Assembly (NCBI GenBank): GCA_019636755.1
Contig: JAHBWZ010000002.1
Location: 434,001-498,000 of the forward strand
Origin: Phycisphaeraceae bacterium
GTDB taxonomy: Bacteria > Planctomycetota > Phycisphaerae > Phycisphaerales > SM1A02
Direction: 5' to 3'
DNA: 64,000 nt
Shown: positions 21,402-63,655 of the stretch, piece after piece
Position numbering within the stretch: position 1 is the first letter of the stretch
Layout: every line of letters starts with the position of its first letter
Position numbers and translations under genes: made by a program
The notes under the pieces: model-generated
The model's input: the letters and a program-made list of their open reading frames with translations, nothing else
What the model was told of the DNA's origin: nothing
Databases searched by the model: none

Positions 21402-23083
21402 TCACTCGATCGTCGCGATGCACGCCGACAGCGCCACCGGGTCGTAGCCCACACGCGCGATGCAGTCCTGCACCGACTGCGGCAGACCCTGCGCCTGCTG
21501 GCCGCAGACGCCCCAGTTGGAACTCAGGATCAGGAGATCGGTGAACCCGGCATCACGATTCCCGTCCAGATCCCACGGACACCACGCGCACGCATGGCCG
21601 CACGGACCCCAGTTGGCCAGGAGCAGCAGCAGATCGCTGAACCCGATCTCGCCGTCCTCGTCCAGGTCTCCGGGACGGTCGCAGTCGTCGATCGGGGTCA
21701 GCAGATAGAGCCGGTACAGATCCTCCGTCTGACCACTTGTGTCGCGGCCCCACGCGATGATCCAGCCGTGGTCATTGATGTCGAACGCCTGGAAGAGGAG
21801 GACCGACCCGCAGTCTTCGCACTCGATGTCCACGGTCCCGGAGCCGCCGCCCACCTGGAGCCGCCAGCCTTCCCATGCACCGCTGTTCGTCATCGATGCA
21901 AACGCCGGGAGTCTCCAGAGGAGTGGGAACCCCTGAATGGGATGCCATCCGACGACCTGCGCCATGAAGGACCCTCGATTGATTGACTCGGCACGCGACT
22001 CAGATGCCACCGCATCCACCGCATCGTGCAGCCGCACCAGCGACGACGATGACGCCGGCCAGAGCGCCGCCTCCCGCCGACAGTCGATCTCCTCCTCTTC
22101 CCCTTCGTAGAACGCGAAACTGAAGCCCACTGCCGTGCCCTGGACCTGCACGCCGCGCGCGGTCGAGTGCCGGATCTGCGGAGGCGAGGCAGCGTCGCCC
22201 AGGGTCTCCAGCACTTCGATGGACGGCTGGAAGCGCAGCGGGCGCACACCGTCCTGGCATGCCACCGCAGATGTGATCTGACACGCCTCGCTCCGCGGCG
22301 TCTGCCACGCGCGGCCCGCCAGGATGATCTGTTCCACTTCCACCTGCGCGATCACCACCGTGCGGCGCTCCGCGTCGTACGCGAGCGTGCTGGGCATCGC
22401 GGGGCCACCCGTGACACACACCGCACGATCCAGCGGTGAGAAGGCCGGCGTGCCGCCCAGGTCCTCCAGGACGCCCGCCGACACGAAGCAGCGCGAGTCC
22501 TCGCTTCCCTGGCAGTCCGAGTACACGCACGTCCCGTCTCTGCCCGTCTCGAGCACGACCGCAGGATCGTCGTCTCCGGTCACCGCCATCGCCCGTGCCC
22601 ACCGGGACCCCGGATTGCACGGATCGGGTGCTTCGCCGTCGAAGACCAGCACCTGCCACCGCAGTCCCAGGAGGTCCGCGGGATCGGCGATGAACGCCTT
22701 GCCGATGCCCGCGAGGACGCCTTCGCCGCCGAACTGCCCCACGATGAAGCCCCCGTCACCAATGTCACGCGCGTAGGAGTCGCCGGTCAGGATGGGCTCC
22801 GGGTCCTGCCCGGAGGTATCCACGAAGCAGGTCGAGAGATCGTGCACACCGGCGTCCTTGCCGAATGCCGCTTCCGGAAGCCAGACCATCGCGCGGTACG
22901 ACCCGCCCGAGAGGCGCCGCGTGAAAGCGACCTGGCCGCAGTTGTTGATCCCGAAGCGGCCTTCAAGGTCCGCATCGGGCTGGAACCCGATGATCGAGAT
23001 CTCCGTCATCTGGTACCTGGGAGGAGTGGCCTGCGCCGAGCGCGCCATGTCACGCAGCCCCGGCAGAAGACATGCCAGCGCCA

Positions 23084-23084
<1 letters not shown>
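21402..23084 (-). CDS. Secreted dockerin-repeat protein (copy 1 of duplicated pair)
   Basis: Predicted exported protein, 560 residues, of unknown role. The body has the look of HAF-type extracellular repeats (FGINNCGQVAFTRRL, ARDIGDGGFIVGQFGG, FDINDHGWIIAWG). The C-terminus has two EF-hand dockerin-like units (DLDEDGEIGFSDLLLLLANW and DLDGNRDAGFTDLLILSSNW) and a Cys-containing tail. The ATG at 23084 has no Shine-Dalgarno site; instead it overlaps the stop of a 39-residue leader ORF (TGATG). The frame upstream of the ATG is open for ~35 more codons and encodes an Arg-rich stretch that would complete a signal peptide, but it lacks its own start. A shorter copy is at 61820-63259, lacking an internal ~81 residues. 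Confidence 0.83.
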
Positions 23085-23203
<119 letters not shown>

Positions 23204-23602
23204 GACGGGGGGTACTCCTTTGTTGAGGTCTGGTGTCATGAACGCGATAAGGCGGATCCAGTGAAGGAGGGTGGGAGGCACGAGGTCGGCCGGGCCGGAG
23301 CGGGAGGCCCCGCGGGTCCGGGGGTCCGGGGGCCGAGCACGGGCCAGACCGTCCTCTTCTTCTTCAGGTACGCCATCCTGCACGGGATCCTGCGGGCATC
23401 GGCGCGAAATCAGAAAAATTGTTCGGGACGGGTGGGGAGCCGGCGCTGGGCCTCGAGCACGCATAGGGCCAGCATGCCCGGCAGGGGGCAGGCACTCGCG
23501 CCTGACCGGACGCCTGTCGATGAGGCCGACGAGCCCGACGGGCAGACGCCAGTCGAGGAAACGCCGAATCCGAGCCAGACCAACCGAGCGCGCACCTTCG
23601 CC

Positions 23603-29026: not shown

Positions 29027-29577
29027 CGCGTCCTTTCCTCTCCCGGATCATGCTCGTCCCTCCGGAAGACGGGCGGGAGTCCGAGCGCGCCGAGGATCCG
29101 GTCCTCCTCCGCGTGCATCGCCCGGAACGCGTCCGCATCGTGGTCGTCGTGCCCCGCGGCGTGCAGCAGGCCGTGCAGGATGTAGAGCAGGAGTTCCTCG
29201 CGAACCCCGTGCCTGCGCGCGGCGGCCTCCCGCCGCGCCACGTCCGCCCCGACGGCGATGTCCACGTCGATCGGCGCGGGCGGCGCCGCGTGGACGAACG
29301 TCAGGACATCCGTCGGGCCCGACTCGCCCAGGTGGCGCCCATGCATGTCCGCCATCGCGGCATCGTCCAGCAGCACCACGGCGACCCGCTCCACCGCGCA
29401 CGGCAGGTGCGGCAGGGCGCGCACGGTCATCTCGCGCAGCCACGCCTCCATGCCGGGACTGCCGGGACCGCCGGGACCGCCGGGACCGCCCCGGACCGTG
29501 ACATCGCAGCGCCCCGCGTCCGGGCGGTCGTCGGCCGCGCCGGTGCATTCCGACGGCGCCTCGCGTGCTCGCGGCAT
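29023..29577 (-). CDS. ybeY: Endoribonuclease YbeY (rRNA maturation)
   Basis: Zinc-dependent RNase of 16S rRNA maturation and ribosome quality control. Recognised by VAVVLLDDAAMADMHGRHLG, the diagnostic TDVLTFVH and the zinc motif HGLLHAAGHDDHD. The classical motif HxxxHxxxxxH is altered: the first two His fit (about residues 135 and 139), but the third expected position is Asp, with His at +8 and +11 relative to the first. The N-terminal strand (CDVTVRG) is followed by a Gly-Pro run. The start is uncertain: ATG 29577 is chosen as the nearest one before that strand, and the frame is open to 29811. It is cotranscribed with the corC-type gene. Confidence 0.85.
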   Translation of the reverse strand: MPRAREAPSECTGAADDRPDAGRCDVTVRGGPGGPGGPGSPGMEAWLREMTVRALPHLPCAVERVAVVLLDDAAMADMHGRHLGESGPTDVLTFVHAAPPAPIDVDIAVGADVARREAAARRHGVREELLLYILHGLLHAAGHDDHDADAFRAMHAEEDRILGALGLPPVFRRDEHDPGEERTR

Positions 29578-40977: not shown

Positions 40978-42885
40978 ATGGGCCGCCCATCCGCGCGACT
41001 ACCATCCGCGTCCGTGCTGCTCCGCACCGCCAATCTCGGACGTTCCTTCAGCCACCGCGGCCTCTTCGCGCACGTGGCGCTCACCATCGACGCAGGGGAG
41101 CGGATCGGCCTGATCGGACCCAACGGCTCCGGGAAGTCCACGCTGCTGCGGCTGATCGCCGGGATGGACGACCCCGATGAAGGCGAGATCATGCGCCGCC
41201 GCGGCCTCCGCATCGCGTTCGTTCCGCAGCAGGACGACTTCGACCCGCAGGCGTCGGTCGGGGAGACGCTCGCGCGCCTGGCCGGTGAGGTCGCGGGCGG
41301 GACATCCGGCGCCGCGCGGACACCCGCGGACCAGGCGGCGCTGGCCGCCGTCCTGCAGCAGGCGGGATTCACCGACCCGTCGGCGCAGGTCGGTTCGCTC
41401 TCCGGCGGCTGGCGGAAGCGCCTGGCGATCGCGGGCGGGCTCGCCGCCGCGCCGGACCTCCTTCTGCTGGACGAACCGACGAACCACCTGGACCTGGAGG
41501 GCATCGCGTGGCTGGAGGACCGCATCCGCCGCGCGCCCTGCACCAGTCTCTTCGTCACCCATGACCGCTTCTTCCTGGAGCGGGTCGCGACGCGGATCAT
41601 CGAACTCAGCCACCAGTATCCGACGGGGACCTTCGAAGCCCGCGGTGGATACGACGAGTTCCTGCGCCGCCGGGACGAGTTCCTCGCGGGCCAGCAGCGC
41701 GAGCGCGATGCCCTGGCGAACCGCGTGCGGGAGGACATCGCCTGGCTCCGGCAGGGGGCGCAGGCGCGGCGCACCAAGGCGAAGTCGCGCATCCAGGATG
41801 CCGGCGATCGCATGGACCGGCTCTCACAACTGCGCGACCGCACCCGCGAAACCAGCCGCGCGGGCATCGACTTCCAGGCCTCGGGCCGGCGGTCGCGGAA
41901 ACTGCTGCGCGCAACGGACCTGGCGAAGTCCCTGGGCGGGCGCACGCTCTTCCGGAACCTCTCGCTGGAACTCGGCCCGGGTGACCGCCTGGGACTTCTC
42001 GGCGCCAACGGCAGCGGCAAGACGACGCTCATCCGCATCCTGACCGGCGCGCTGGCGCCGGACGAAGGCGCGGTGGAGCGCGCCGAGGCGCTCAGGCTGG
42101 TCACGTTCACGCAGTACCGCGAATCGCTGGATCCGGATCGCACGCTGCACGAGTCGCTCGTCCCGGTGGGCGACACGGTGCACTTCCAGGGCCGCGCGAT
42201 GCACATCACGACGTGGGCGAAGCGCTTCCTGTTCCGGCCGGAGCAGCTCCAGTCACCGGTCGGGCAGCTCTCCGGCGGCGAGCAGGCGCGCGTCCTCATC
42301 GCGCGGCTCATGCTCGAGCCGGCGGACGTCCTGATCCTGGATGAGCCGACAAACGACCTGGACATTCCCACGCTCGAAGTCCTGGAGCAGAGCATCGAGG
42401 CGTTCCCCGGCGCGGTCGTTCTTGTCACGCATGATCGATTCATGCTGGAGCGACTTGCGACGGAACTGCTCTGGCTGGACGGCCGCGGCGGGACGCACGG
42501 GTTCGCCAGTTTCGACCAGTTCGAGGCCGCGGCGGCGGCGCGGGCGGAGCGCCGCGACACGACAGCGCGGACGGGAAGCCCGCGCACGCAGCCGACCGAG
42601 CCTCCTGCCGGCGCCCTGGGTGCGGCCACGGCCACCGCGGCGCGACCGCGACGCAGGCTTTCGAACCGCGAGCAGCGCGAATGGGACGGCATGGAGTCGG
42701 TGATCGAGCAGGCCGAGCGGCGCGTCGGCGCACTGGAGCACGCCCTCGCAGATCCGGCCACCGCGGGCGATCACGTCCGAAGCCACGCGCTCTACGAGGA
42801 ACTCAGCCGCGCGCAGGCCGAGGTCGCTCGCCTCTACACCCGCTGGGCGGAACTGGAGTCCCTGCAGCGCGGTCCGTCCGGATGA
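40978..42885 (+). CDS. ABC-F family ATPase (Uup/EttA-type)
   Basis: Cytoplasmic tandem ATPase acting on ribosomes or translation rather than transport. Two nucleotide-binding domains are seen: Walker A GPNGSGKSTLLRL and GANGSGKTTLIRI, signatures SLSGGWRKRLAIAGGL and QLSGGEQARVLIARLM, Walker B LLLLDEPTNHLDLEG and VLILDEPTNDLDIPT. Between them is the ABC-F linker (~60-80 residues, rich in Arg/Glu). A C-terminal coiled coil (REWDGMESVIEQAERRVGALE ... AEVARLYTRWAELE) matches Uup. ATG 40978 is used; GTG 41014 immediately before LLRTANLG is an alternative. Confidence 0.92.
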   Translation: MGRPSARLPSASVLLRTANLGRSFSHRGLFAHVALTIDAGERIGLIGPNGSGKSTLLRLIAGMDDPDEGEIMRRRGLRIAFVPQQDDFDPQASVGETLARLAGEVAGGTSGAARTPADQAALAAVLQQAGFTDPSAQVGSLSGGWRKRLAIAGGLAAAPDLLLLDEPTNHLDLEGIAWLEDRIRRAPCTSLFVTHDRFFLERVATRIIELSHQYPTGTFEARGGYDEFLRRRDEFLAGQQRERDALANRVREDIAWLRQGAQARRTKAKSRIQDAGDRMDRLSQLRDRTRETSRAGIDFQASGRRSRKLLRATDLAKSLGGRTLFRNLSLELGPGDRLGLLGANGSGKTTLIRILTGALAPDEGAVERAEALRLVTFTQYRESLDPDRTLHESLVPVGDTVHFQGRAMHITTWAKRFLFRPEQLQSPVGQLSGGEQARVLIARLMLEPADVLILDEPTNDLDIPTLEVLEQSIEAFPGAVVLVTHDRFMLERLATELLWLDGRGGTHGFASFDQFEAAAAARAERRDTTARTGSPRTQPTEPPAGALGAATATAARPRRRLSNREQREWDGMESVIEQAERRVGALEHALADPATAGDHVRSHALYEELSRAQAEVARLYTRWAELESLQRGPSG

Positions 42886-43030
42886 GCCGGCCTGCTGCCA
42901 CGCCCGGCGAGCACGCCGGTATCGTGATCGGGCACCCCCTCGTGCAAGCAGCGCCTTCGCACGCATCGAGATCCGCACCGAGTCACTTCGTCTTCATCAC
43001 GCCATGCCGCACCTCTCCGGAGAAGCACCG

Positions 43031-43858
43031 ATGACCCGCCTTCGAACTCTGTCGCCGGCCGCAATCCTCTTTGTCGGGGCCCTGGTGCTGCTGGCCCGCG
43101 CGGGCGGGGCACCGGGCACCGCCGGCGCCGACGCGACCGGCGCCGATCCGATCGCGCCGGCCATGGATGTCGCGCCGCGGCGCGTCGCGCTGATCACCGG
43201 CGCGAATCGCGGCATCGGACTGGAGTTCGCCCGCCAACTCGCGGCGGACGGCTGGACCGTCATCGGCACCGCGCGGGCACCGGCGGACGCGGTCGACCTT
43301 GCGGCGACCGGAGCGCGCGTCGAGGCGCTGGATGTCGCCGATCCGGCCAGCGTGGAGGCGCTCGCGAAGCGGCTGGACGGCACGCCGATCGATCTGCTCA
43401 TCAACAATGCCGGGCGCGGCGCCTCGCCGCGCAGCGGGAAGCTCTCCGGGATCGACTTCGACGCGGTGCGGGACGTGATCGCCGTCAACACGATCGGCCC
43501 GATGCGTGTCACGCAGGCGCTGCTCCCGAACCTGCAGGCCGGCGCGGGGAAACTGATCGTGAGTATCTCCAGCCGGCTGGCAAGCGTGGAACTCAATACG
43601 AACGCCGGCTACTACGGCTATCGGGAGAGCAAGACGGCGCTCAACATGTTCATGCGTTCCCTTGCGGCAGAACTGAAGCCCGATGGATTCCGCTGCATCG
43701 CGATCAGCCCGGGCTGGGTGCGCACGGACATGGGCGGACCGGAGGCCACGCTGAGTCCGGAGCAGAGCGTCGGCGGGATGCTCCGGGTCCTCTCCACGCT
43801 GACGATCGATGACAGCGGCGGCTACTTCTCGTACGACGGCAGTCGATTGCCGTGGTAG
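43031..43858 (+). CDS. SDR-family oxidoreductase with N-terminal signal/anchor
   Basis: NAD(P)-dependent short-chain dehydrogenase of 275 residues. It has the cofactor loop (ITGANRGIGLEF), NNAG, the catalytic SISS...YYGYRESK triad and the SPGWVRTDMGG segment seen in sepiapterin-reductase-like members. Unusually, the enzyme is preceded by ~45 residues with a hydrophobic helix (TLSPAAILFVGALVLLARAGG), which looks like a membrane anchor or signal peptide. The ATG at 43031 has GGAG about 8 nt upstream, so the anchor is part of the protein; an earlier in-frame ATG at 43004 lacks that support. Confidence 0.87.
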   Translation: MTRLRTLSPAAILFVGALVLLARAGGAPGTAGADATGADPIAPAMDVAPRRVALITGANRGIGLEFARQLAADGWTVIGTARAPADAVDLAATGARVEALDVADPASVEALAKRLDGTPIDLLINNAGRGASPRSGKLSGIDFDAVRDVIAVNTIGPMRVTQALLPNLQAGAGKLIVSISSRLASVELNTNAGYYGYRESKTALNMFMRSLAAELKPDGFRCIAISPGWVRTDMGGPEATLSPEQSVGGMLRVLSTLTIDDSGGYFSYDGSRLPW

Positions 43859-44250
43859 GTGTTGCGGCACGAGTGCCGTGGTCCGGGAGCGCATGTCGAT
43901 GGAGACTGCGCGCGCCTGGCGTTGCGTTCTCCGGGGTGGCGCCATTTGCGTGTGCTCTGTCGCCAGCAGCCGGGCGATTCTCGACAGGTTGAGCGAAGAC
44001 GGGGCACGCCCGGCCGGTTGCTGGATCTTCCATCGCCCGGAGACCCGGGCGCGGCGCAGCCCGCCGACCACCCCCGGATCACCTCGCATATGCCGCCGTC
44101 AGCGTCCGGCTCATGGCGGCAGGATGCGCTTTCTGGCAGCGCGCCGGGCGGGGGTGCCGAAGAGGGCGACAATCAGTCGGACAGGGCGGAAGCGTGGGAC
44201 ATGCCTGACGAGTCTGAACTGGTTGACGCTATGGAACCGGAGGGGGACCC
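43859..44250. other. Intergenic region before four-helix-bundle gene
   Basis: About 390 nt with no supported gene. A TTGACG at 44222-44227 is close to the next start but has no matching -10. GGAGGGGG just before 44251 is a clear ribosome-binding site for the following gene. Confidence 0.4.
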
Positions 44251-45000
44251 ATGAGCCGCGACGGGGGCGTGTTGTTGCCGCACGGCGGCTACGAGAAGCT
44301 GCGCGCCTACGCGGTGGCGGAGGCCGTGTACGACGCCACGGTCGTCTTCTGCGACCGCTTCGTCGACCGGCGGTCGCGCACACACGACCAGATGGTGCAG
44401 GCGGCGCGCAGCGGGGTTCGCAACATCTCCGAGGGCAGCGGCGCGGCGGCCACTTCCAGAAAGACCGAGATCAAGCTGACCAATGTTGCCCGCGCCAGCC
44501 TGAATGATGAGCTGCGCAAGGATTACAGGAGTTTCCTGATCCAGAACGGACTGCGGGTCTGGCACAAGGACGCGCCCGAAGCTCTGGCCATGCGCGAGCG
44601 CCTGAAGCACGATGTGGCGCCCGATCTGCCGCCGGCCAGGCCGGGAGTGGTGCGCCTGAGCGGCCTGGCGGGGCTTGCGCAGTTTGTCGGCGTGGCGGAG
44701 CCGGAGATGGCGGCCAATGCCATGCTCTGCGCGGTGAACCAGGCCGCCTATCTGCTGCGCCGCCTCTGCGAGCAACAGGCGCGCGCGTTTCTCGAAACGG
44801 GCGGTTTCACGGAGAACCTCTATGCCGCGCGCGTTCGGGCCCGGGCAAGTATCGCCAATGCCATGGTGCCGGCCTGCCCCCTGTGCGGAAAGCCCATGCG
44901 CCAGCGCACGGCCCGACAGGGCCCCCATGCCGGCCAGCCCTTCTGGGGCTGCACCGGCTATCCGGACTGCAAGGGCACGATGGCCTCTGGCAGGGAATAG
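44251..45000 (+). CDS. Four-helix-bundle protein with C-terminal C4 zinc finger
   Basis: Product of 249 residues. The N-terminal ~110 residues match the S23/four-helix-bundle family (YEKLRAYAVAEAVYDATVVF ... QMVQAARSGVRNISEGSGAAATSRKTEIKLTNVARASLNDEL). The C-terminal end is a topoisomerase-like C4 zinc finger (CPLCGKPMRQRTARQG...FWGCTGYPDCKGTM), the combination known as the four helix bundle suffix class. A strong ribosome-binding site precedes ATG 44251. Function unknown; S23 relatives include proteins encoded in 23S rRNA intervening sequences and Avd of diversity-generating retroelements, but neither context is visible. A 9-bp tandem array follows the stop by 6 nt. Confidence 0.87.
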   Translation: MSRDGGVLLPHGGYEKLRAYAVAEAVYDATVVFCDRFVDRRSRTHDQMVQAARSGVRNISEGSGAAATSRKTEIKLTNVARASLNDELRKDYRSFLIQNGLRVWHKDAPEALAMRERLKHDVAPDLPPARPGVVRLSGLAGLAQFVGVAEPEMAANAMLCAVNQAAYLLRRLCEQQARAFLETGGFTENLYAARVRARASIANAMVPACPLCGKPMRQRTARQGPHAGQPFWGCTGYPDCKGTMASGRE

Positions 45001-45006
45001 TCTGGC

Positions 45007-45060
45007 CGGTCTGACCCGTCGGACCGGTCAGACAAGTCAGCCCGGTCCGACGGATCGGAC
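45007..45060. repeat. Array of six degenerate 9-bp units
   Basis: Six consecutive nonamers fitting NNGTCNGAC loosely: CGGTCTGAC, CCGTCGGAC, CGGTCAGAC, AAGTCAGCC, CGGTCCGAC, GGATCGGAC. Units differ from one another yet keep the GTCxGAC core, which makes the array partly self-complementary. It begins 6 nt after the four-helix-bundle gene. Confidence 0.75.
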
Positions 45061-45339
45061 GCCTCTGGAGGGAAACCCCAGTGACCACCGACACCAGCGA
45101 AAGGGGCCCCGAAACCCTGATCATGCGGCACATGACCGGTACCGACGGTTTCGCCGTAGCTCCGGACCGGGTTGCCGAACGGCCACCGCGATAGAGCAGC
45201 ATCCCGTCTGCAGATCTACGCCCCTGCGCGCCCGAAGTCCGTCCGGCCACGTTGCTTGACAGGCCGCCCGCCGGATCGAGAGGATGTCGGCTTCGTCCAA
45301 TTCTGCTCCGCTCCTCCCCGACGGCACGAGAGGCCCACC

Positions 45340-45459
45340 ATGCGCACGCGTGAGATCAACCCGGCGGACGGCTGCAGGCCGGTGTGCACGCTTCTCGGCG
45401 TCGCCCGGCTGTTCGAGCCGGAACTCATGATCGAACTGGAGGCCACCGCGGTGGCGTGA
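45340..45459 (+). pseudogene. RidA-family C-terminal fragment
   Basis: The 39-codon frame from ATG 45340 ends RPVCTLLGVARLFEPELMIELEATAVA, matching the last ~27 residues of RidA/YjgF-type enamine deaminases (RPxxTxxGVxxLxxPxxLxEIEAxAV). The rest of the ~125-residue family is absent; the frame upstream is unrelated. Read as a gene remnant in a decayed region. Confidence 0.55.
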
Positions 45460-45546
45460 GGCCGTCGGCGTTACAGGTCGCTGCTCGCCGTGCGCCGGTC
45501 TCGCCCGATGCACTGGTCCGCGTATGGCGTTTGCCGGGCCCGAGTC

Positions 45547-46098
45547 ATGAACGATCCGACCATCAGGTTCGATTGCACGGTCGAAGACTACGCCTACATG
45601 CTTCGCCGGATGAGCGAATTGAACCCGGACCTGCTCCCCAGGCTCTGGCCCATTCGATTCGTAACCGCCGGCTTCATCGGCCTGGCCTTGTACTTCCTGT
45701 CGACCTGGCTCTTCTCCCTCGGCGCTCCGTCGGGAGCGGCGGCAGGCCTGGCCGTCGCCCTGTGGGTGTTGTGGGCCTTCCCGCGACACATGCGCCGGAA
45801 CCTGGACAAGGCATGTCGCCGCATCGCCGGGAAGCAACCCGCGCTCACGCCATACGAGATTTCGTTGAGTGCTGGAGGCGTGCGAGTCGTGACTCCGAGC
45901 GTCGACGCCGTCTCGCGATGGCACACCGTCCGTTCCGTCGCGCAGGGGCCACGGTGCGTTGAGTTCCGTCTCGTCGACGGTGCGATCACACTGGTGCCGA
46001 ATCGGGCGTTCGAGAGCCCCGACCATGCCGCGGCCTTCATCGCACAGGCAGAGCAGCTGCGGCAGGCGACCGTTCATGGTGACGGCCAGGCCACCTGA
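45547..46098 (+). CDS. YcxB-like membrane protein
   Basis: Product of 183 residues starting MNDPTIRFDCTVEDYAYMLR. Two membrane helices (IRFVTAGFIGLALYFLSTWLF, GAAAGLAVALWVLWAFP) are followed by a PH-like cytoplasmic domain (ISLSAGGVRVVTPSVDAVSRW, VRSVAQGPRCVEFRLVDGAITLVPNRAF), the typical YcxB layout. Function of the family is unknown. ATG 45547 is chosen because FDCTVEDY begins the domain; an open frame to 45490 adds non-conserved residues. Confidence 0.75.
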   Translation: MNDPTIRFDCTVEDYAYMLRRMSELNPDLLPRLWPIRFVTAGFIGLALYFLSTWLFSLGAPSGAAAGLAVALWVLWAFPRHMRRNLDKACRRIAGKQPALTPYEISLSAGGVRVVTPSVDAVSRWHTVRSVAQGPRCVEFRLVDGAITLVPNRAFESPDHAAAFIAQAEQLRQATVHGDGQAT

Positions 46099-46276
46099 CA
46101 AGCCGGTGCAGTCGACGATCGGCGGGGGCGCGCGCGGGGCGGGTGCGATAGCATGGGACGCGCCGCTCGCGACGGCTCGGCAAGGCGTCCGGCAGACGGC
46201 CTCACCGCCGGCCAACCGTGGAACACGCAATCCATCGCGTTGCGATCACACCCCCGAAAGAACCAGAGTCCCCAGT

Positions 46277-46738
46277 ATGACCAGGGTCACACCGTTCCTG
46301 ATGTTCAACGATCAGCTCGAGGCGGCCATGGCGTTCTACACCGCCACCTTCCCGGATTCCGAGATCAGGAACGCGGCGCGCACCGGCGAGGACGGTCCGA
46401 TCACCTCCGCCGAGTTCGTCGTGGGCGGCCAGGTCTTCATGGGCTACAACGGCGGCCCGCACTTCACGTTCTCCCAGGGTGTCTCGTTCTTCGTTGACTG
46501 CGAAGACCAGGCTGAAGTGGACGCGTACTGGGACAGGTTCGTCAAGGCCGGTGCGACGCCGGTTCAGTGCGGCTGGATCAGAGATCCGTTCGGTCTCTCG
46601 TGGCAGATCGTGCCGCGCCGGTTCATGGAACTGATCCGCGACAACGACGCCAGGCGCGTGAAGGCTGTGATGGCGGCCATGATGACGATGGTCAAGCTCG
46701 ACGTCGCGGCCCTTGAGCGAGCCTTCAGTGAGGCGTAG
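46277..46738 (+). CDS. VOC-family protein (PhnB/3-demethylubiquinone methyltransferase-like)
   Basis: A 153-residue glyoxalase-fold protein. Signatures of the PhnB-like branch: TPFLMFNDQLEAAMAFYTATFPDSEI, FVVGGQVFMGYNGGPHFTFSQGVSFFVDCEDQ, VDAYWDRFVKAGATPVQCGWIRDPFGLSWQIVPRRFMELI. Role unknown; these often occur in small detoxification-type accessory clusters. ATG 46277 gives the canonical start. Its stop is directly followed, in frame, by the truncated reductase remnant. Confidence 0.9.
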   Translation: MTRVTPFLMFNDQLEAAMAFYTATFPDSEIRNAARTGEDGPITSAEFVVGGQVFMGYNGGPHFTFSQGVSFFVDCEDQAEVDAYWDRFVKAGATPVQCGWIRDPFGLSWQIVPRRFMELIRDNDARRVKAVMAAMMTMVKLDVAALERAFSEA

Positions 46739-47152
46739 CGGTGCCACACACCACACCTGGCCGCGCTGCCCGACAACGTGCTGCACCTGACGGCGCTGCG
46801 CGAGTGGGCGATCAGACTGGAGGCCAAGCCGAAGTACGTCGTGTCGTCGACGCGAAGGGACTTCCCGTGGACCAGCAGCCACCACCTCGCCGGCGACCTG
46901 CGCACGGACGTACAGAGTCTGAAGGACGCGACCCCGGCCGGCGCGCTCCTCGGGAGCGGCACGCTCGCGACCGGACTGGACCGGCTGGATCTGATCGACG
47001 AGTACAGGTCCCTCATTCACCCCAGGATCGCCGGCCAGGGCCCGACCCTGTACCAGGGCGGACTGCCCGGCACGCGACGGCTCGAGCTGGTCTCGGCGAC
47101 GCCGCTCCGAAGCGGTACGGTCGCCATGCACGACCGGCGCGCACGCCGCTGA
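46739..47152 (+). pseudogene. 5'-truncated dihydrofolate-reductase-family (RibD-C-like) gene
   Basis: Beginning directly after the VOC stop, the frame matches the C-terminal two thirds of YyaP-type dihydrofolate-reductase-like proteins: LEAKPKYVVSSTRRDFPW, LKDATPAGALLGSGTLATGLDRLDLIDEYRSLIHPRIAGQGPTLY. The usual N-terminal ~60 residues with the first strand and cofactor contacts are missing, and the only start is GTG 46778. Probably non-functional. Confidence 0.7.
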
Positions 47153-47353
47153 CGACTGGTTACAGCGGCCGGTCGGCGCGAGCGCGGCGGCGCACCATCG
47201 CGTTCAGGTCAGAGAACGATGAGACGCGGACTCAAGGCGCACCGGTCCCAACCGACTGCGAGCACCCCGACCCCGCTCTGTGCGCTCCGCGTCCTCGCGG
47301 TCACTCTTCCTGCATCCCCGCCGATCGCCGCGCCCCGCGCCCGCCACGGCCCC

Positions 47354-48559
47354 TCACCCCAGGTTCTCTGCATCCAGCGGGACCTGCGCTTCGATCGTCA
47401 GTCCGAATCCGTGCAGTGCCGGCAGCGTCTTGGGGTGATTGGTCAGCAGGCGCAGTCGGGAGAGCCCCAGGTCGCGCAGGATCTGGCCGCCGATGCCGAT
47501 GTCGCGCTGACTGATGGGCATGGCGCGCCCGCCGGGGCCATCGGCACGCGTGAGATCCGGTGCGTTGACGCTGTCCACGCCCGAGCGCCGGATGCGGAGC
47601 AGGCGGTTGCGCAGGTCGTCGCCGAATCCCTCGGTGCGCAGATAGACGACCGCGCCGCGGCCCTCCCGCTGGATCCGGCGCATCGCCGCGCGCAGGGACT
47701 CGCCGGTGGGATTCGTCCGTTCCAGGAAGATATCGCCGAGCAGGTCGCGCCGGTGCATGCGCACCAGCGTCGGATCATCGACGGGGACCACGCGTCCCGT
47801 GTCATCGAGTGCACCGATGCCGCCCGTGGTCAGGGCAAGGTGCGGCAGGGGATCGATCTCGCTCTGCCAGGCGAAGAGCGTGAACGAGCCCTCGGGGGTC
47901 TCGATCGGCGTGCCGTTGACCGGCTCCAGGCGCGAGACCAGCGTTTCCCGCGCCATCCGGTACTCGATGATCTGCTCCACCGAGCACATGCGCAGACCGT
48001 GCTCGGCGCAGAGGCGCTCGAGCTGCGGCATGCGGGCCATCGCGCCGTCGCTGTCCACGACTTCGATGATGACCGCGCTGGGATGCAGCCCGGCGAGCCG
48101 GCAGAGATCCACCGATCCCTCGGTCTGCCCGGTGCGGACCAGCACGCCCCCGTCGCGGGCGCGCAGCGGATTGATGTGGCCGGGACGGACGAAGTCGTCG
48201 ATCGTCGAGGCGGGATCGATGAGCAGGCGGATCGTCTTCGCGCGATCGGGTGACGAGACGCCGGTGCCCACGCCGCGCCGCGGGTGACCGTCCACGGAGA
48301 CGGTGAAGGGCGTGCCCCACATGCTGGTGTTGAAGGTTGCCTGCGGCTTGAGGTCCAGGCGATCACAGTCGGCACCGGTCAGGGCGACACAGAGGTACCC
48401 GCCCCCGACCCGGGTCATGAAGGTGATCGTTTCCGGCGTGATCTTCTCCGCCGCGCAGACGAAGTCGCCCTCGTTCTCACGGTCCTCGTCGTCGACCAGG
48501 ACGATGATCCGGCCCGCGCGCAGGTCGTCGAGGATCTCAGGAATGGGCGAGAGCGGCAT
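47354..48559 (-). CDS. ribB: Bifunctional RibBA-like protein with degenerate GTP cyclohydrolase II half
   Basis: Riboflavin-synthesis protein of 401 residues. The N-terminal half (1-~205) is a complete 3,4-dihydroxy-2-butanone-4-phosphate synthase: DDEDRENEGDFVCAAE, TSMWGTPFTVSVDG, RPGHINPLRARDGGVLVRTGQTEGSVDLCRLAG. The second half is GTP cyclohydrolase II-like (VRMHRRDLLGDIFLERTNPTGESL ... QRDIGIGGQILRDLGLSRLRLLTNHPKT), but the three zinc cysteines normally in SxCLTGDxFGSxRCDCG are all absent. RibB activity is expected; RibA activity is not. ATG 48559 has TAGAGT 6 nt upstream, suggesting a leaderless mRNA. Confidence 0.9.
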   Translation of the reverse strand: MPLSPIPEILDDLRAGRIIVLVDDEDRENEGDFVCAAEKITPETITFMTRVGGGYLCVALTGADCDRLDLKPQATFNTSMWGTPFTVSVDGHPRRGVGTGVSSPDRAKTIRLLIDPASTIDDFVRPGHINPLRARDGGVLVRTGQTEGSVDLCRLAGLHPSAVIIEVVDSDGAMARMPQLERLCAEHGLRMCSVEQIIEYRMARETLVSRLEPVNGTPIETPEGSFTLFAWQSEIDPLPHLALTTGGIGALDDTGRVVPVDDPTLVRMHRRDLLGDIFLERTNPTGESLRAAMRRIQREGRGAVVYLRTEGFGDDLRNRLLRIRRSGVDSVNAPDLTRADGPGGRAMPISQRDIGIGGQILRDLGLSRLRLLTNHPKTLPALHGFGLTIEAQVPLDAENLG

Positions 48560-61819: not shown

Positions 61820-63259
61820 TCACTCGATCGTCGCGATGCACGCGGCCAGTGCCACCGGGTCATAGCCCACGCGGGCGATGCAGTCCTGCACCGACTGCGG
61901 CAGGCCCATCGCCTGCTGGCCGCAGACACCCCAGTTGGAACTCAGGATCAGGAGGTCGGAGAACCCGACATCACGATTCCCGTCCAGGTCCCACGGGCAC
62001 CACGCGCAGGCATGGCCGCACGGGCCCCAGTTGGCCAGGAGCAGCAGCAGATCGCTGAACCCGATCCCGCCGTCCTCGTCCAGGTCTCCGGGACGGTCGC
62101 AGCCGTCGATCGGGGTCAGAAGGTACAGGCGATAGCGGTCATCTCCCTGGGAACCACGTTCGCCCCACGCGATGATCCAGCCGTGATCGTTGACGTCGAA
62201 CGCCTGGCGCAGAAGGACGGTCTCGCAGTCCTCGCACTCGATCTCCACGGTCCCGGCACCGCCGCCTATCTGGAGCCGCCACCCCTCCCATGCACCGCTG
62301 TTCGTCATCGATGCATACGCCGGGAGTCTCCAGAGGAGCGGGACCACCTGATCGGTATCCCACCCCACGACCTGCGTCAGGAACGATGCGCGGTTGATCG
62401 ACTCGGCGCGGGAATGAAACGCCACCGCATCCACCGCATCGTGCAGCCGCACCAGCGCCGACGATGATGCCGGCCAGAGCACCGCCTCGCGCCGGCAGTC
62501 GATCTCCTCCACCTCCTCCTCTTCGATCACCACCGTGCGGCGCTCCGCGTCGTACGCGAGCGTGCTGGGCATCGCGGGGCCACCCGTGACACACACCGCA
62601 CGATCCAGCGGTGAGAAGGCCGGCGTGCCGCCCAGGTCCTCCAGGACGCCCGCCGACACGAAGCAGCGCGAGTCCTCGCTTCCCTGGCAGTCCGAGTACA
62701 CGCACGTCCCGTCTCTGCCCGTCTCGAGCACGACCGCAGGATCGTCGTCTCCGGTGACCGCCATCGCCCGTGCCCATCGGTTCTCGGGATCGCAGGGGCT
62801 GGGCGCTTCGCCTTGGAAGACCAGCACCTGCCACGGCAGTCCCAGGATGTCCGCGGGATCGGCGATGAACGCCTTGCCGGTGCCCGCGATGATGCCGGTG
62901 CCGCCGAACTGGCCCACGATGAAGCCCCCGTCACCGATGTCACGCGCATAGGAATGGCCGGTCAGGATGGGCTCAGGATCCTGGCCGGAAGTGTCCACGA
63001 ACCAGGTCGAGAGATCGTGCACACCGGCGGCCTTCCCGAATGCGGCCTCCGGCAGCCACACCATCGCGCGGTACGACCCGCCCGAGAGGCGCCGCGTGAA
63101 GGCGATCTGGCCGCAGTTGTTGATCCCGAACCGGCCTTCAAGGTCCGCATCAGGCTGGAACCCGATGATCGAGATCTCCGTCATCTGGTACCGCGGCGGG
63201 TCGGCGTGGGCTGAGCGCGACATGTCACGCAGCCCCGGAAACAGGCATGAGAGCGCCAT
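61820..63259 (-). CDS. Secreted dockerin-repeat protein (copy 2 of duplicated pair)
   Basis: 479-residue paralogue of 21402-23084 with very high identity (for example AMVWLPEAAFGKAAGVHDLS, VTGDDDPAVVLETGRDGTCV). Compared with copy 1 it lacks an in-frame ~81-residue segment between RRTVVI and EEIDCRREA, a 243-bp deletion. The two dockerin-like units and Cys-containing tail are kept (DLDEDGGIGFSDLLLLLANW, DLDGNRDVGFSDLLILSSNW). The ATG at 63259 lacks a Shine-Dalgarno site and overlaps the TGA of the leader ORF. It is followed after 21 nt by the PEP-CTERM fusion gene. Confidence 0.83.
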   Translation of the reverse strand: MALSCLFPGLRDMSRSAHADPPRYQMTEISIIGFQPDADLEGRFGINNCGQIAFTRRLSGGSYRAMVWLPEAAFGKAAGVHDLSTWFVDTSGQDPEPILTGHSYARDIGDGGFIVGQFGGTGIIAGTGKAFIADPADILGLPWQVLVFQGEAPSPCDPENRWARAMAVTGDDDPAVVLETGRDGTCVYSDCQGSEDSRCFVSAGVLEDLGGTPAFSPLDRAVCVTGGPAMPSTLAYDAERRTVVIEEEEVEEIDCRREAVLWPASSSALVRLHDAVDAVAFHSRAESINRASFLTQVVGWDTDQVVPLLWRLPAYASMTNSGAWEGWRLQIGGGAGTVEIECEDCETVLLRQAFDVNDHGWIIAWGERGSQGDDRYRLYLLTPIDGCDRPGDLDEDGGIGFSDLLLLLANWGPCGHACAWCPWDLDGNRDVGFSDLLILSSNWGVCGQQAMGLPQSVQDCIARVGYDPVALAACIATIE

Positions 63260-63354
63260 CAGCGCGCAAGAACCGCGAACCGCGAACCGCGAACGGGAAT
63301 CGTGCCGGCCGACGCGCCGGCGTCAAGGGAGATGGGATGTCGAGTGTTCGTCAT
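63259..63354 (-). CDS. Leader ORF with heptanucleotide repeats (copy 2)
   Basis: A 31-residue ORF, ATG 63354 with AAAGGAG upstream, ending in TGATG over the dockerin start. It equals the 39-residue leader of copy 1 minus one Arg codon and three heptamers. Same start, same ribosome-binding site and same overlap are kept. Function inferred only. Confidence 0.5.
   Translation of the reverse strand: MTNTRHPISLDAGASAGTIPVRGSRFAVLAR
63270..63290 (-). repeat. Tandem heptanucleotide tract, 3 x GCGGTTC
   Basis: Three perfect units in the same position as the six-unit tract at 23095-23136. Confidence 0.95.
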
Positions 63355-63655
63355 GACGGCGGGTACTCCTTTGGTGAGGTCTGGTGTCATGAACGCGAAA
63401 AGGCGGATCCAGTGAACGAGGGCGGGAGGCACGAGGTCGGCCGGGCCGGAGCGGGAGGTCCCCGGGGGTCCGGGGGTCCGGGGGTCCGGGGGTTCGGGGG
63501 TTCGGGGGCCAAGCACGGGCCAAGCCGTCCTCTTCTTCTTCAGGTACGCCATCCTGCACGGGATCCTGCGGGCATCGGCGCGAAATCAGAAATTTCTTCG
63601 GGGCGGGATGGGGAGGCGGAGGGGGCCTCGAGCACGCACGCACGGCACCAGAGGG

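What the first reader, a model, noticed from the sequence alone, without database searches (positions are those of the whole stretch)
44251..45060. Four-helix-bundle/zinc-finger gene followed by a nonamer array
Six 9-bp units with a GTCxGAC core begin 6 nt after an S23-like protein that also has a topoisomerase-type C4 finger. Units vary at flanking bases but keep the core, an arrangement of a recognition array. S23 relatives bind nucleic acid (Avd). A protein with its own repeat array could be an uncharacterised selfish or DNA-processing module; neighbouring genes are decayed, in keeping with a mobile locus.
Basis: partly seen in the sequence, partly recalled or inferred. Interest (0 to 1): 0.6.

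Follow-up and report, generated by a model that had tools for sequence, protein, structure and literature searches.

The report
Helical-bundle gene with own repeat arrays
A small helical protein gene sits on a short nine-letter repeat array, and its relatives in many bacterial phyla do the same with the repeat length and spelling following the type of protein, which points to a widespread, so far unnamed gene-plus-repeat element that may account for many of the puzzling seven-letter repeats of bacteria.

Summary
The array is real: seven 9-bp units (four perfect GTCnGAC cores) at 45000-45062, overlapping the stop codon of an S23/IVP-type bundle gene with the TIGR04258 'suffix' and a Top1 zinc ribbon. 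Lag-9 self-similarity is 26/36, reached by 0 of 1000 shuffles.

Of 80 homologue loci, 44 carry 9-bp arrays in or beside the gene, against at most 3 at any of ten other lags and 13 of 1261 control windows. The control surprised: plain S23 genes carry 7-bp (36 of 60) or 8-bp (12 of 60) arrays and 9-bp in 0 of 60, mostly as inverted flanks (37 of 41). Spelling follows the protein tree (6 dialects, 6 changes, shuffled mean 32). Several host genomes hold more arrays of the gene's dialect.

Best reading: S23 proteins and arrays form REPIN-like elements, one unit recognised per subunit. Linkage is shown; binding and mobility are inferred. In the window's genome no further copy was found, and the neighbours tested are not decayed. 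Heptamers beside the Coxiella S23 ORF are in print; the general link was not found in ten searches.

The parts
44251..45000 (+). Gene for a 249-aa S23/IVP-type helical bundle protein with TIGR04258 suffix and Top1-type zinc ribbon
44302..44544 (+). Helices 1-3 of the bundle (residues 18-98), with the conserved DQMVQAARSG..NI.EG stretch
   Evidence: AlphaFold2 model, mean pLDDT 90.8; alignments A1 and A2
44608..44661 (+). Loop before the suffix (residues 120-137; pLDDT 54 and 64 in blocks 121-130 and 131-140): about where many homologues hold an internal 9-bp array; none seen here
44701..44847 (+). TIGR04258 suffix (residues 151-199); helix 151-183 takes the place of the last bundle helix when laid on 2gsc/2rld
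44872..44979 (+). Topoisomerase-type C4 zinc ribbon (residues 208-243)
45000..45062 (+). Nonamer array: GTCTGGCCG GTCTGACCC GTCGGACCG GTCAGACAA GTCAGCCCG GTCCGACGG ATCGGACGC; overlaps the stop codon
   Evidence: as RNA, 44995-45085 folds at -48.3 kcal/mol, z -4.62

Best explanation
The gene and its array are one member of a widespread kind of element: an S23/IVP-type helical bundle gene together with short tandem arrays whose unit length and spelling belong to that protein lineage. Shown: linkage of gene and array; period 9 for suffix-type proteins, 7 or 8 for plain S23; unit spelling following the protein tree; same-dialect arrays elsewhere in several of the host genomes. Inferred: the protein, an oligomer (its solved relatives have five chains), recognises the array, one unit per subunit, on DNA or on the transcript; the arrays (typically 4-5 units, in plain S23 mostly as inverted flanks) are the cis part that is copied or kept in the genome, so that S23 plus arrays behaves like a REPIN-type selfish pair, with the gene-bearing copy as the coding member and gene-less inverted array pairs as its small non-coding relatives. 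The Pfam scan shows no catalytic domain in the protein, so copying would need borrowed host or transposon enzymes. In the window's genome the element has no dispersed copies and may now be a single resident or an autoregulated gene.
For: 1) 9-bp arrays in or within 400 bp of 44 of 80 homologue loci, other lags at most 3 of 80, controls 13 of 1261. 2) Plain S23 genes as control: lag 7 in 36 of 60, lag 8 in 12 of 60, lag 9 in 0 of 60 near the gene at 26/36; far windows 8, 6 and 2 of 120. Suffix genes at 26/36: lag 9 in 30 of 80, lag 7 in 2, lag 8 in 0. 3) Period 7 versus 8 on a tree of 63 plain S23 proteins: 8 changes, shuffled mean 14.4, 0 of 500 as low. 4) Dialect on the suffix-protein tree: 6 dialects in 67 loci need 6 changes (least 5), shuffled 32.2, 0 of 200; with the first 100 residues only, 7 changes against 32.1, while 14 phyla on 48 rows of that tree need 24 changes, shuffled 28.8. 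The dialect classes were defined by me after looking at the arrays. 5) Unit core constrained: mismatch rates 0.00 0.06 0.04 0.46 0.08 0.08 0.12 0.31 0.45 along the nonamer in 60 arrays (phasing on GTC biases positions 1-3). 6) In trans: GTCCnnnnn x4 gives 5-42 hits in 6 of 12 gene-bearing genomes searched, 2 hits in two and 0 in four (overlapping hits of one array count apart, and some G237 hits look like coding repeats); genomes with at least 5 hits are 8 of 22 gene-bearing and 5 of 276 others, P 2.4e-7; the GAAGTTA array of one S23 gene has 296 hits in its own genome, 20-68 in three genomes of its genus, 0-6 in eight others. 7) 37 of 41 plain S23 loci with both flanks have inverted arrays of one dialect. 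8) Fold: 2gsc Z 15.5 and 2rld Z 13.3, each deposited with 5 chains. 9) Array length about 5 units at the median. 10) Coxiella rRNA IVS: tandem heptamers in front of S23p, number varying between strains (PMC4990558, section 16 read).
Against: No binding, expression or transposition datum for this protein. In the window's genome no dispersed array was found (its one GTCC-type hit is the GC-rich repeat at window 29456). 36 of 80 suffix loci show no array at the threshold used, and 13 of 86 plain S23 loci none. In a first set of plain S23 loci 2 of 30 did reach 24/36 at lag 9 and 2 at lag 12. Three genomes without a detected suffix gene (G179, G186, G214) hold array-like hits. For suffix genes the two flanks are not mostly inverted (4 of 11). 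Dialect and period could follow the protein simply because gene and array are inherited together. The Coxiella paper found no sign that S23p is made in vivo.
Confidence: 0.6

Rival explanations
1. The array is a set of operator or RNA sites for autoregulation: the protein binds the repeats in its own message or promoter, and the dispersed arrays are a regulon. Nothing moves.
For: Arrays lie next to and inside the gene; the window array forms a strong RNA hairpin at the stop codon (z -4.62); units with a fixed core and free spacer bases recall ring proteins such as TRAP (recalled, not looked up).
Against: In G103 and G132, 18 array pairs were seen as elements of roughly 100-210 bp whose centres are largely shared, some with other heptamer dialects nested in them, which looks like insertion rather than a regulon; array orientation to the gene is mixed.
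Confidence: 0.2
2. Passenger model: another enzyme (for example a Y1/RAYT transposase) or replication slippage makes the arrays, and S23 genes only ride in such repeats.
For: Y1 transposase matches in 10 of 12 genomes searched; slippage was proposed for heptamers by Mrazek and co-workers as cited in PMC4679880 (section 3 read).
Against: G237, which has 42 GTCC-type hits, and its relative G155 have no Y1 match; slippage does not explain why unit length changes with the S23 subtype or why spelling follows the protein tree.
Confidence: 0.12
3. Terminator or mRNA-stability hairpin: the palindromic GTCnGAC units at 45000-45062 are just a strong 3' stem-loop of this gene.
For: 15-bp stem in the RNA fold, -48.3 kcal/mol, 0 of 200 shuffles as good.
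Against: Homologues carry the arrays upstream and inside the coding region as well; non-palindromic dialects (GTCCnAT, GTCCAC) are used by other clades; no T-run follows in the sequence.
Confidence: 0.08

Closest known systems
23S rRNA intervening sequence (IVS) elements with an S23/IVP ORF
   Same: S23 ORF between terminal inverted repeats; the Coxiella IVS has tandem heptamers before the ORF, differing in number between strains (PMC4990558, section 16 read and passages seen)
   Different: Window gene is not in an rRNA gene (0 Rfam hits at 42000-47500; protein-coding neighbours); unit 9 bp, not 7; has suffix and zinc ribbon; no significant upstream array
REPIN/RAYT (REP doublets with a REP-associated tyrosine transposase)
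   Same: A gene beside repeats whose own group is dispersed as inverted pairs; each gene has its repeat group (PMC3116915, passages seen)
   Different: The protein is a helical bundle with no Y1 match in the Pfam scan; the repeats are tandem 7-, 8- or 9-bp units and not single palindromes
STRR and other heptameric repeats (cyanobacteria, GGGAATC of Xanthomonas, TAACTGA of Beggiatoaceae)
   Same: Tandem units, in X. campestris mostly four per site with 70 convergent pairs and 89% intergenic (PMC4692102, section 10 read); the solved S23 protein 2gsc (XCC0516) is from X. campestris; S23 genes on Nostoc, Calothrix and other cyanobacterial plasmids have 7-bp flanks
   Different: No S23 partner is named in the two papers ('S23' and 'four helix': 0 occurrences in either main text); the window's units are 9 bp
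Avd of diversity-generating retroelements
   Same: Related bundle; PMC10053308 notes homology of Avd (4DWL) with PF05635 (2GSC) (passages seen)
   Different: No search for a reverse transcriptase or a template/variable repeat pair was made; none among the five neighbouring ORFs scanned

Membership tests
TIGR04258 four helix bundle suffix | score over the curated cut-off | tested here: met
   63.4 bits, cut-off 40
S23/IVP four-helix bundle (TIGR02436, PF05635) | TIGR02436 score over cut-off | tested here: met
   25.5 bits, cut-off 24
S23/IVP four-helix bundle (TIGR02436, PF05635) | PF05635 score over gathering cut-off | tested here: not met
   23.7 bits, cut-off 33.8: a divergent relative by this model, so I call it S23-like
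S23/IVP four-helix bundle (TIGR02436, PF05635) | S23 fold | tested here: met
   2gsc_B Z 15.5, rmsd 2.0, 114 of 117 residues; 2rld_E Z 13.3; next row 10.4. Foldseek E-values are weak (best 0.057)
S23/IVP four-helix bundle (TIGR02436, PF05635) | ring of five | not testable with these tools
   relatives deposited with 5 chains; title of Lin et al. 2006 in the reference list of PMC3936711
Top1 C4 zinc ribbon | Pfam score over cut-off | tested here: met
   34.2 bits, cut-off 32
rRNA intervening sequence | lies inside an rRNA gene | tested here: not met
   0 Rfam matches at 42000-47500
REPIN/RAYT | repeat-linked gene encodes a Y1 tyrosine transposase | tested here: not met
   no Y1_Tnp among the Pfam matches up to E 1
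REPIN/RAYT | cognate repeats dispersed in the same genome | tested here: not met
   own genome: only this array; met in several related genomes
STRR heptamers | 7-bp unit | tested here: not met
   unit is 9 bp
DGR Avd | reverse transcriptase and TR/VR pair nearby | not tested
   only five neighbouring ORFs were scanned with Pfam

The most novel reading that the evidence does not exclude
S23/IVP proteins are the missing partners of bacterial short tandem repeats: each S23 lineage specifies the unit length (7, 8 or, with the suffix, 9 bp) and spelling of arrays that it binds and helps to spread, in a REPIN-like way but without a transposase of its own; the rRNA IVS, cyanobacterial STRR, Xanthomonas GGGAATC repeats and S23 genes inside cas and other operons would all be forms of this one element class, and the window holds its nonamer, zinc-ribbon branch.
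Probability: 0.45. Interest if true: 0.95.

Novelty: new variant of a known kind. Interest (0 to 1): 0.83.

Why it matters
[quoted passage not shown] A protein family whose subtype predicts unit length turns that open question into a test: delete or swap the S23 gene and watch the arrays. It would also give a function to S23/IVP proteins, which are found in rRNA genes, plasmids and cas operons without a known role (PMC3936711 reports 18 in cas loci), and would warn against reading them as cas genes.

Tried and rejected
GTC x5 at spacing 9 as a genome-wide probe: 152 of 298 genomes matched and the reversed control was often as rich, since runs of GTC/GAC codons mimic it; dropped for GTCC x4, which misses the window's own GTCnGAC spelling. 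Upstream array of the window gene: not significant. Window heptamers GAACCGC (23095, 63270): no S23-like ORF in the ORF lists beside them (by eye), and of the two plain S23 genes of this genome one (L256) shows 8-bp arrays and one (L257) none, not GAACCGC. rRNA context of plain S23 loci: 0 Rfam hits in the 20 loci given of the 86 analysed. Insertion test: the G265 hairpin array at L151 764-836 lies in a gap of 145 bp where its relative G277 has 84 bp; the flanks are only 75-78% alike, so this is compatible with insertion but is no clean empty site. G155, same genus as G237: BLAST found mainly a dispersed repeat of about 150 bp, not followed further. Inverted flanks for suffix genes: 4 of 11. 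VIA-align rows other than 2gsc and 2rld were not pursued; Avd (4DWL) is not among the 50 rows shown, which excludes nothing.

Rows dropped or odd: from L001-L030, 9 loci were left out of the tree, and from L066-L145 the 4 with an internal stop; 97 entered and 67 had a classifiable dialect. In one search, 65 of 80 loci were aligned. The 86 plain S23 loci are 60 others, loci under about 3250 bases being dropped. In one search, 63 of 86 rows had a usable array label. In one search one locus with different periods on its two sides (L226) was set aside. In one search three of 60 loci were shorter than 3200 bases and were kept. The 69 suffix arrays include one run of N (L125) and a few without GTC units. 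Of 28 plasmid records with a plain S23 match, 13 were fetched, some of them near copies of each other.

Literature: searches listed no paper that I recognised as tying S23 or TIGR04258 proteins to tandem arrays in general; the library holds open-licence PubMed Central papers only, so older and subscription work (for example on cyanobacterial STRR) is unseen.

Full report
What is at the spot. The window (G000:C12:434001-498000 of a 4.11-Mb genome) has at 44251-45000 a 249-aa gene with three recognised parts: an S23/IVP-like bundle (TIGR02436, 25.5 bits against a cut-off of 24; PF05635 only 23.7 against 33.8), the TIGR04258 suffix (63.4 against 40) and a topoisomerase-type zinc ribbon (34.2 against 32). 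Seven 9-bp units follow at 45000-45062, the first starting on the last base of the stop codon; four have a perfect GTCnGAC core. Lag-9 self-similarity is 26 of 36 and 0 of 1000 shuffles reach it; the fainter pattern upstream is not significant. The neighbours include an intact short-chain dehydrogenase and an intact 3-dmu-9_3-mt protein; the short ORFs between have no Pfam match over a cut-off. So decay is not supported as far as tested.

Homologues carry such arrays. In 298 genomes of the class, 22 have a TIGR04258 match at E 0.001, 21 over the cut-off. Reading those loci showed 9-bp arrays in several spellings. Within 400 bp of or inside the gene, 44 of 80 reach 24/36 at lag 9 (18 upstream, 30 inside, 11 downstream), while lags 5-8 and 10-15 give 0 to 3 of 80 and distant windows 13 of 1261; at 26/36 the figures are 30 of 80, 0 to 2, and 8 of 1261. 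Inside the gene they sit at two linkers, one before and one after the suffix; in the model of the window protein the first is a low-confidence loop.

The control that changed the picture. Plain S23 genes without the suffix were meant as a negative control. The first 30 loci gave lag 7 in 18, lag 14 in 14, lag 8 in 3, lag 9 in 2 and lag 12 in 2 at 24/36. A second set of 60 gave, at 26/36 near the gene, lag 7 in 36, lag 8 in 12, lag 14 in 21 (the double of 7), lag 15 in 1 and all other lags from 5 to 13, including 9, in 0; far windows gave 8, 6 and 2 of 120 at lags 7, 8 and 9. So plain S23 genes have 7- or 8-bp arrays, suffix-type genes 9-bp arrays. Of 86 plain loci 73 have an array at 21/28 within 600 bp (56 with 7, 17 with 8), and of 41 with arrays of one period on both sides 37 are better matched as inverted than as direct repeats; mean similarity is 0.67 inverted, 0.42 direct, and 0.44 inverted between different loci. 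On named plasmids, 10 of 13 S23 loci fetched (of 28 records) show 7- or 8-bp arrays at 21/28 beside the gene, in cyanobacteria and Gemmatirosa; the Azospirillum and Picosynechococcus loci show inverted repeats by eye only, and Pseudanabaena PCC 7367 none. Several of these genes sit between genes of one pathway (cas10-S23-cmr3, cas6-S23-cas4 twice, the two ribonucleotide reductase subunits). A suffix gene on a Prevotella plasmid has a weak 9-bp repeat downstream (21/28).

Period and spelling follow the protein. On a tree of 63 plain S23 proteins, period 7 or 8 needs 8 changes, shuffled mean 14.4, 0 of 500 as low. On a tree of 67 suffix-type proteins, six spellings (GTCnGAC, GATC-type, GTCCnAT, GTCCnTT, GTCCA, GTCAA; classes set by me after seeing the arrays) need 6 changes where 5 is the least, shuffled mean 32.2. 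A tree from the first 100 residues, which end before the usual internal array, gives 7 changes; with arrays outside the gene only, 38 rows, 8 changes against 20.9. Phylum labels on the 48 rows with a phylum need 24 changes (shuffled 28.8), so the proteins have crossed phyla and the spelling went with them. The window's spelling is that of its closest relatives in Lentisphaerae, Verrucomicrobia and Planctomycetes. Arrays within one locus resemble each other more than arrays of different loci (0.67 against 0.56). Co-inheritance of gene and array would give the same pattern, so this shows linkage, not binding. Along the nonamer, mismatch between units is low at the core and 0.31-0.46 at three positions, as expected for a recognised core with free spacers; positions 1-3 are biased by how arrays were phased.

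Copies elsewhere in genomes. GTCCnnnnn x4 finds 2 to 42 hits in 8 of 12 gene-bearing genomes (5 or more in 6) and none in 4; reversed controls give 0 to 3 (overlapping hits of one array count apart). G070 has suffix genes with two spellings and dispersed arrays of both. Over 298 genomes, at least 5 hits occur in 8 of 22 gene-bearing and 5 of 276 other genomes, Fisher P 2.4e-7; of those five, G057 and G295 look like coding repeats to my eye, but G179, G186 and G214 look genuine and no suffix gene was found there. For a plain S23 gene of G103, GAAGTTA x3 with up to 3 mismatches has 296 hits in its genome and 20, 56 and 68 in three genomes of its genus, against 0 to 6 in eight others with controls of 0 to 4. 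In G103 and G132, 18 pairs were read as elements of about 100-210 bp: array, largely shared centre with hairpins, inverted array, at times with other heptamer arrays nested inside. In the window's genome nothing of the kind was found.

Structure. The AlphaFold2 model has mean pLDDT 90.8. Foldseek ranks 2gsc first with probability 1.00 but a weak E-value of 0.057; VIA-align gives 2gsc Z 15.5 over 114 of 117 residues and 2rld Z 13.3, the next rows being other helical proteins at 10.4 and less. The 2gsc alignment runs from residue 10 to 177, so the suffix helix completes the S23 bundle and the loop where homologues hold arrays lies within it. Both solved relatives have five chains in their entry, and the title of Lin et al. 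2006 speaks of five four-helix bundles (reference list of PMC3936711). Array length is 5 units at the median for plain S23 (108 arrays) and 4.9 for suffix types (69 arrays); the detection threshold cuts off short arrays, so the match with five subunits is only suggestive.

What is in print. PMC4990558 (section 16 read, other passages seen) reports tandem GACAGAT heptamers before the S23p ORF of the Coxiella rRNA IVS, differing in number between strains. PMC4692102 (section 10 read, passages) reports GGGAATC heptamers in X. campestris, mostly four units, 70 convergent pairs. PMC4679880 (outline with abstract, introduction, passages) reports TAACTGA heptamers, suggests S1, Csp or Csr proteins as binders and cites slippage as an explanation. 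PMC3936711 (passages) reports 18 IVP genes in cas loci. PMC11270868 (passages) finds IVP ORFs at several insertion sites of CPR rRNA genes. PMC3116915 (passages) describes REPINs. In what I saw, none connects S23 with arrays in general, nor did the ten searches listed under Tried and rejected.

How it most likely works. Shown: a reproducible physical linkage of S23-type genes to arrays with a period set by protein subtype and a spelling that follows protein lineage, and same-spelling copies elsewhere in several genomes. Inferred: recognition of the unit by an S23 oligomer, and copying or maintenance of arrays as a REPIN-like pair. Not known: nucleic acid form, partner enzymes, benefit to host. 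Against it stand the lone array in this genome, the loci without arrays, the three array-bearing genomes without the gene, the mixed orientation in the suffix branch, and the absence of any experiment. I put 0.6 on the recognition-plus-element model for the family and hold the autoregulation model as main rival.

Noticed in passing
window 22007-23540 and 62422-63508: Two similar regions, each with a minus-strand ORF that looks like a dockerin-type secreted protein by eye (21402-23084, 61820-63259), share GAACCGC heptamer and CCGGGGGT octamer arrays with different copy numbers; no S23-like ORF in the lists there.
   Followed up: partly
window 29440-29501: The only other strong 9-bp periodicity of the window (score 31/36), GCCGGGACC units, i.e. 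GTCCCGGCG on the minus strand; perhaps a coding repeat, frame not checked.
   Followed up: partly
L256 (G000:C18:40901-41215): A plain S23 gene of the same genome with 8-bp arrays in both orientations upstream.
   Followed up: partly
L018, downstream of the gene: A suffix-type gene fragment lies directly before a CRISPR-like array with repeat ATCTACGACAGTAGAAATTTTATAAGGCCTTTAGAC.
   Followed up: no
L265-L268 (G103, G132): Dispersed elements carry nested arrays of several heptamer dialects and GGCAGG..CCTGCC hairpins in the centre, a candidate structured RNA or DNA element.
   Followed up: partly
L282, L285, L286: S23 genes between cas10 and cmr3 and between cas6 and cas4 on cyanobacterial plasmids; in L285 long CTAAAAG/AAAAGCC arrays flank it and lie between the neighbouring genes too.
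   Followed up: partly
H2-H4 (Nitrosococcus plasmids): Proteins annotated as restriction endonuclease match residues 135-243 of the window protein, suffix and zinc ribbon, at 29-30% identity.
   Followed up: no
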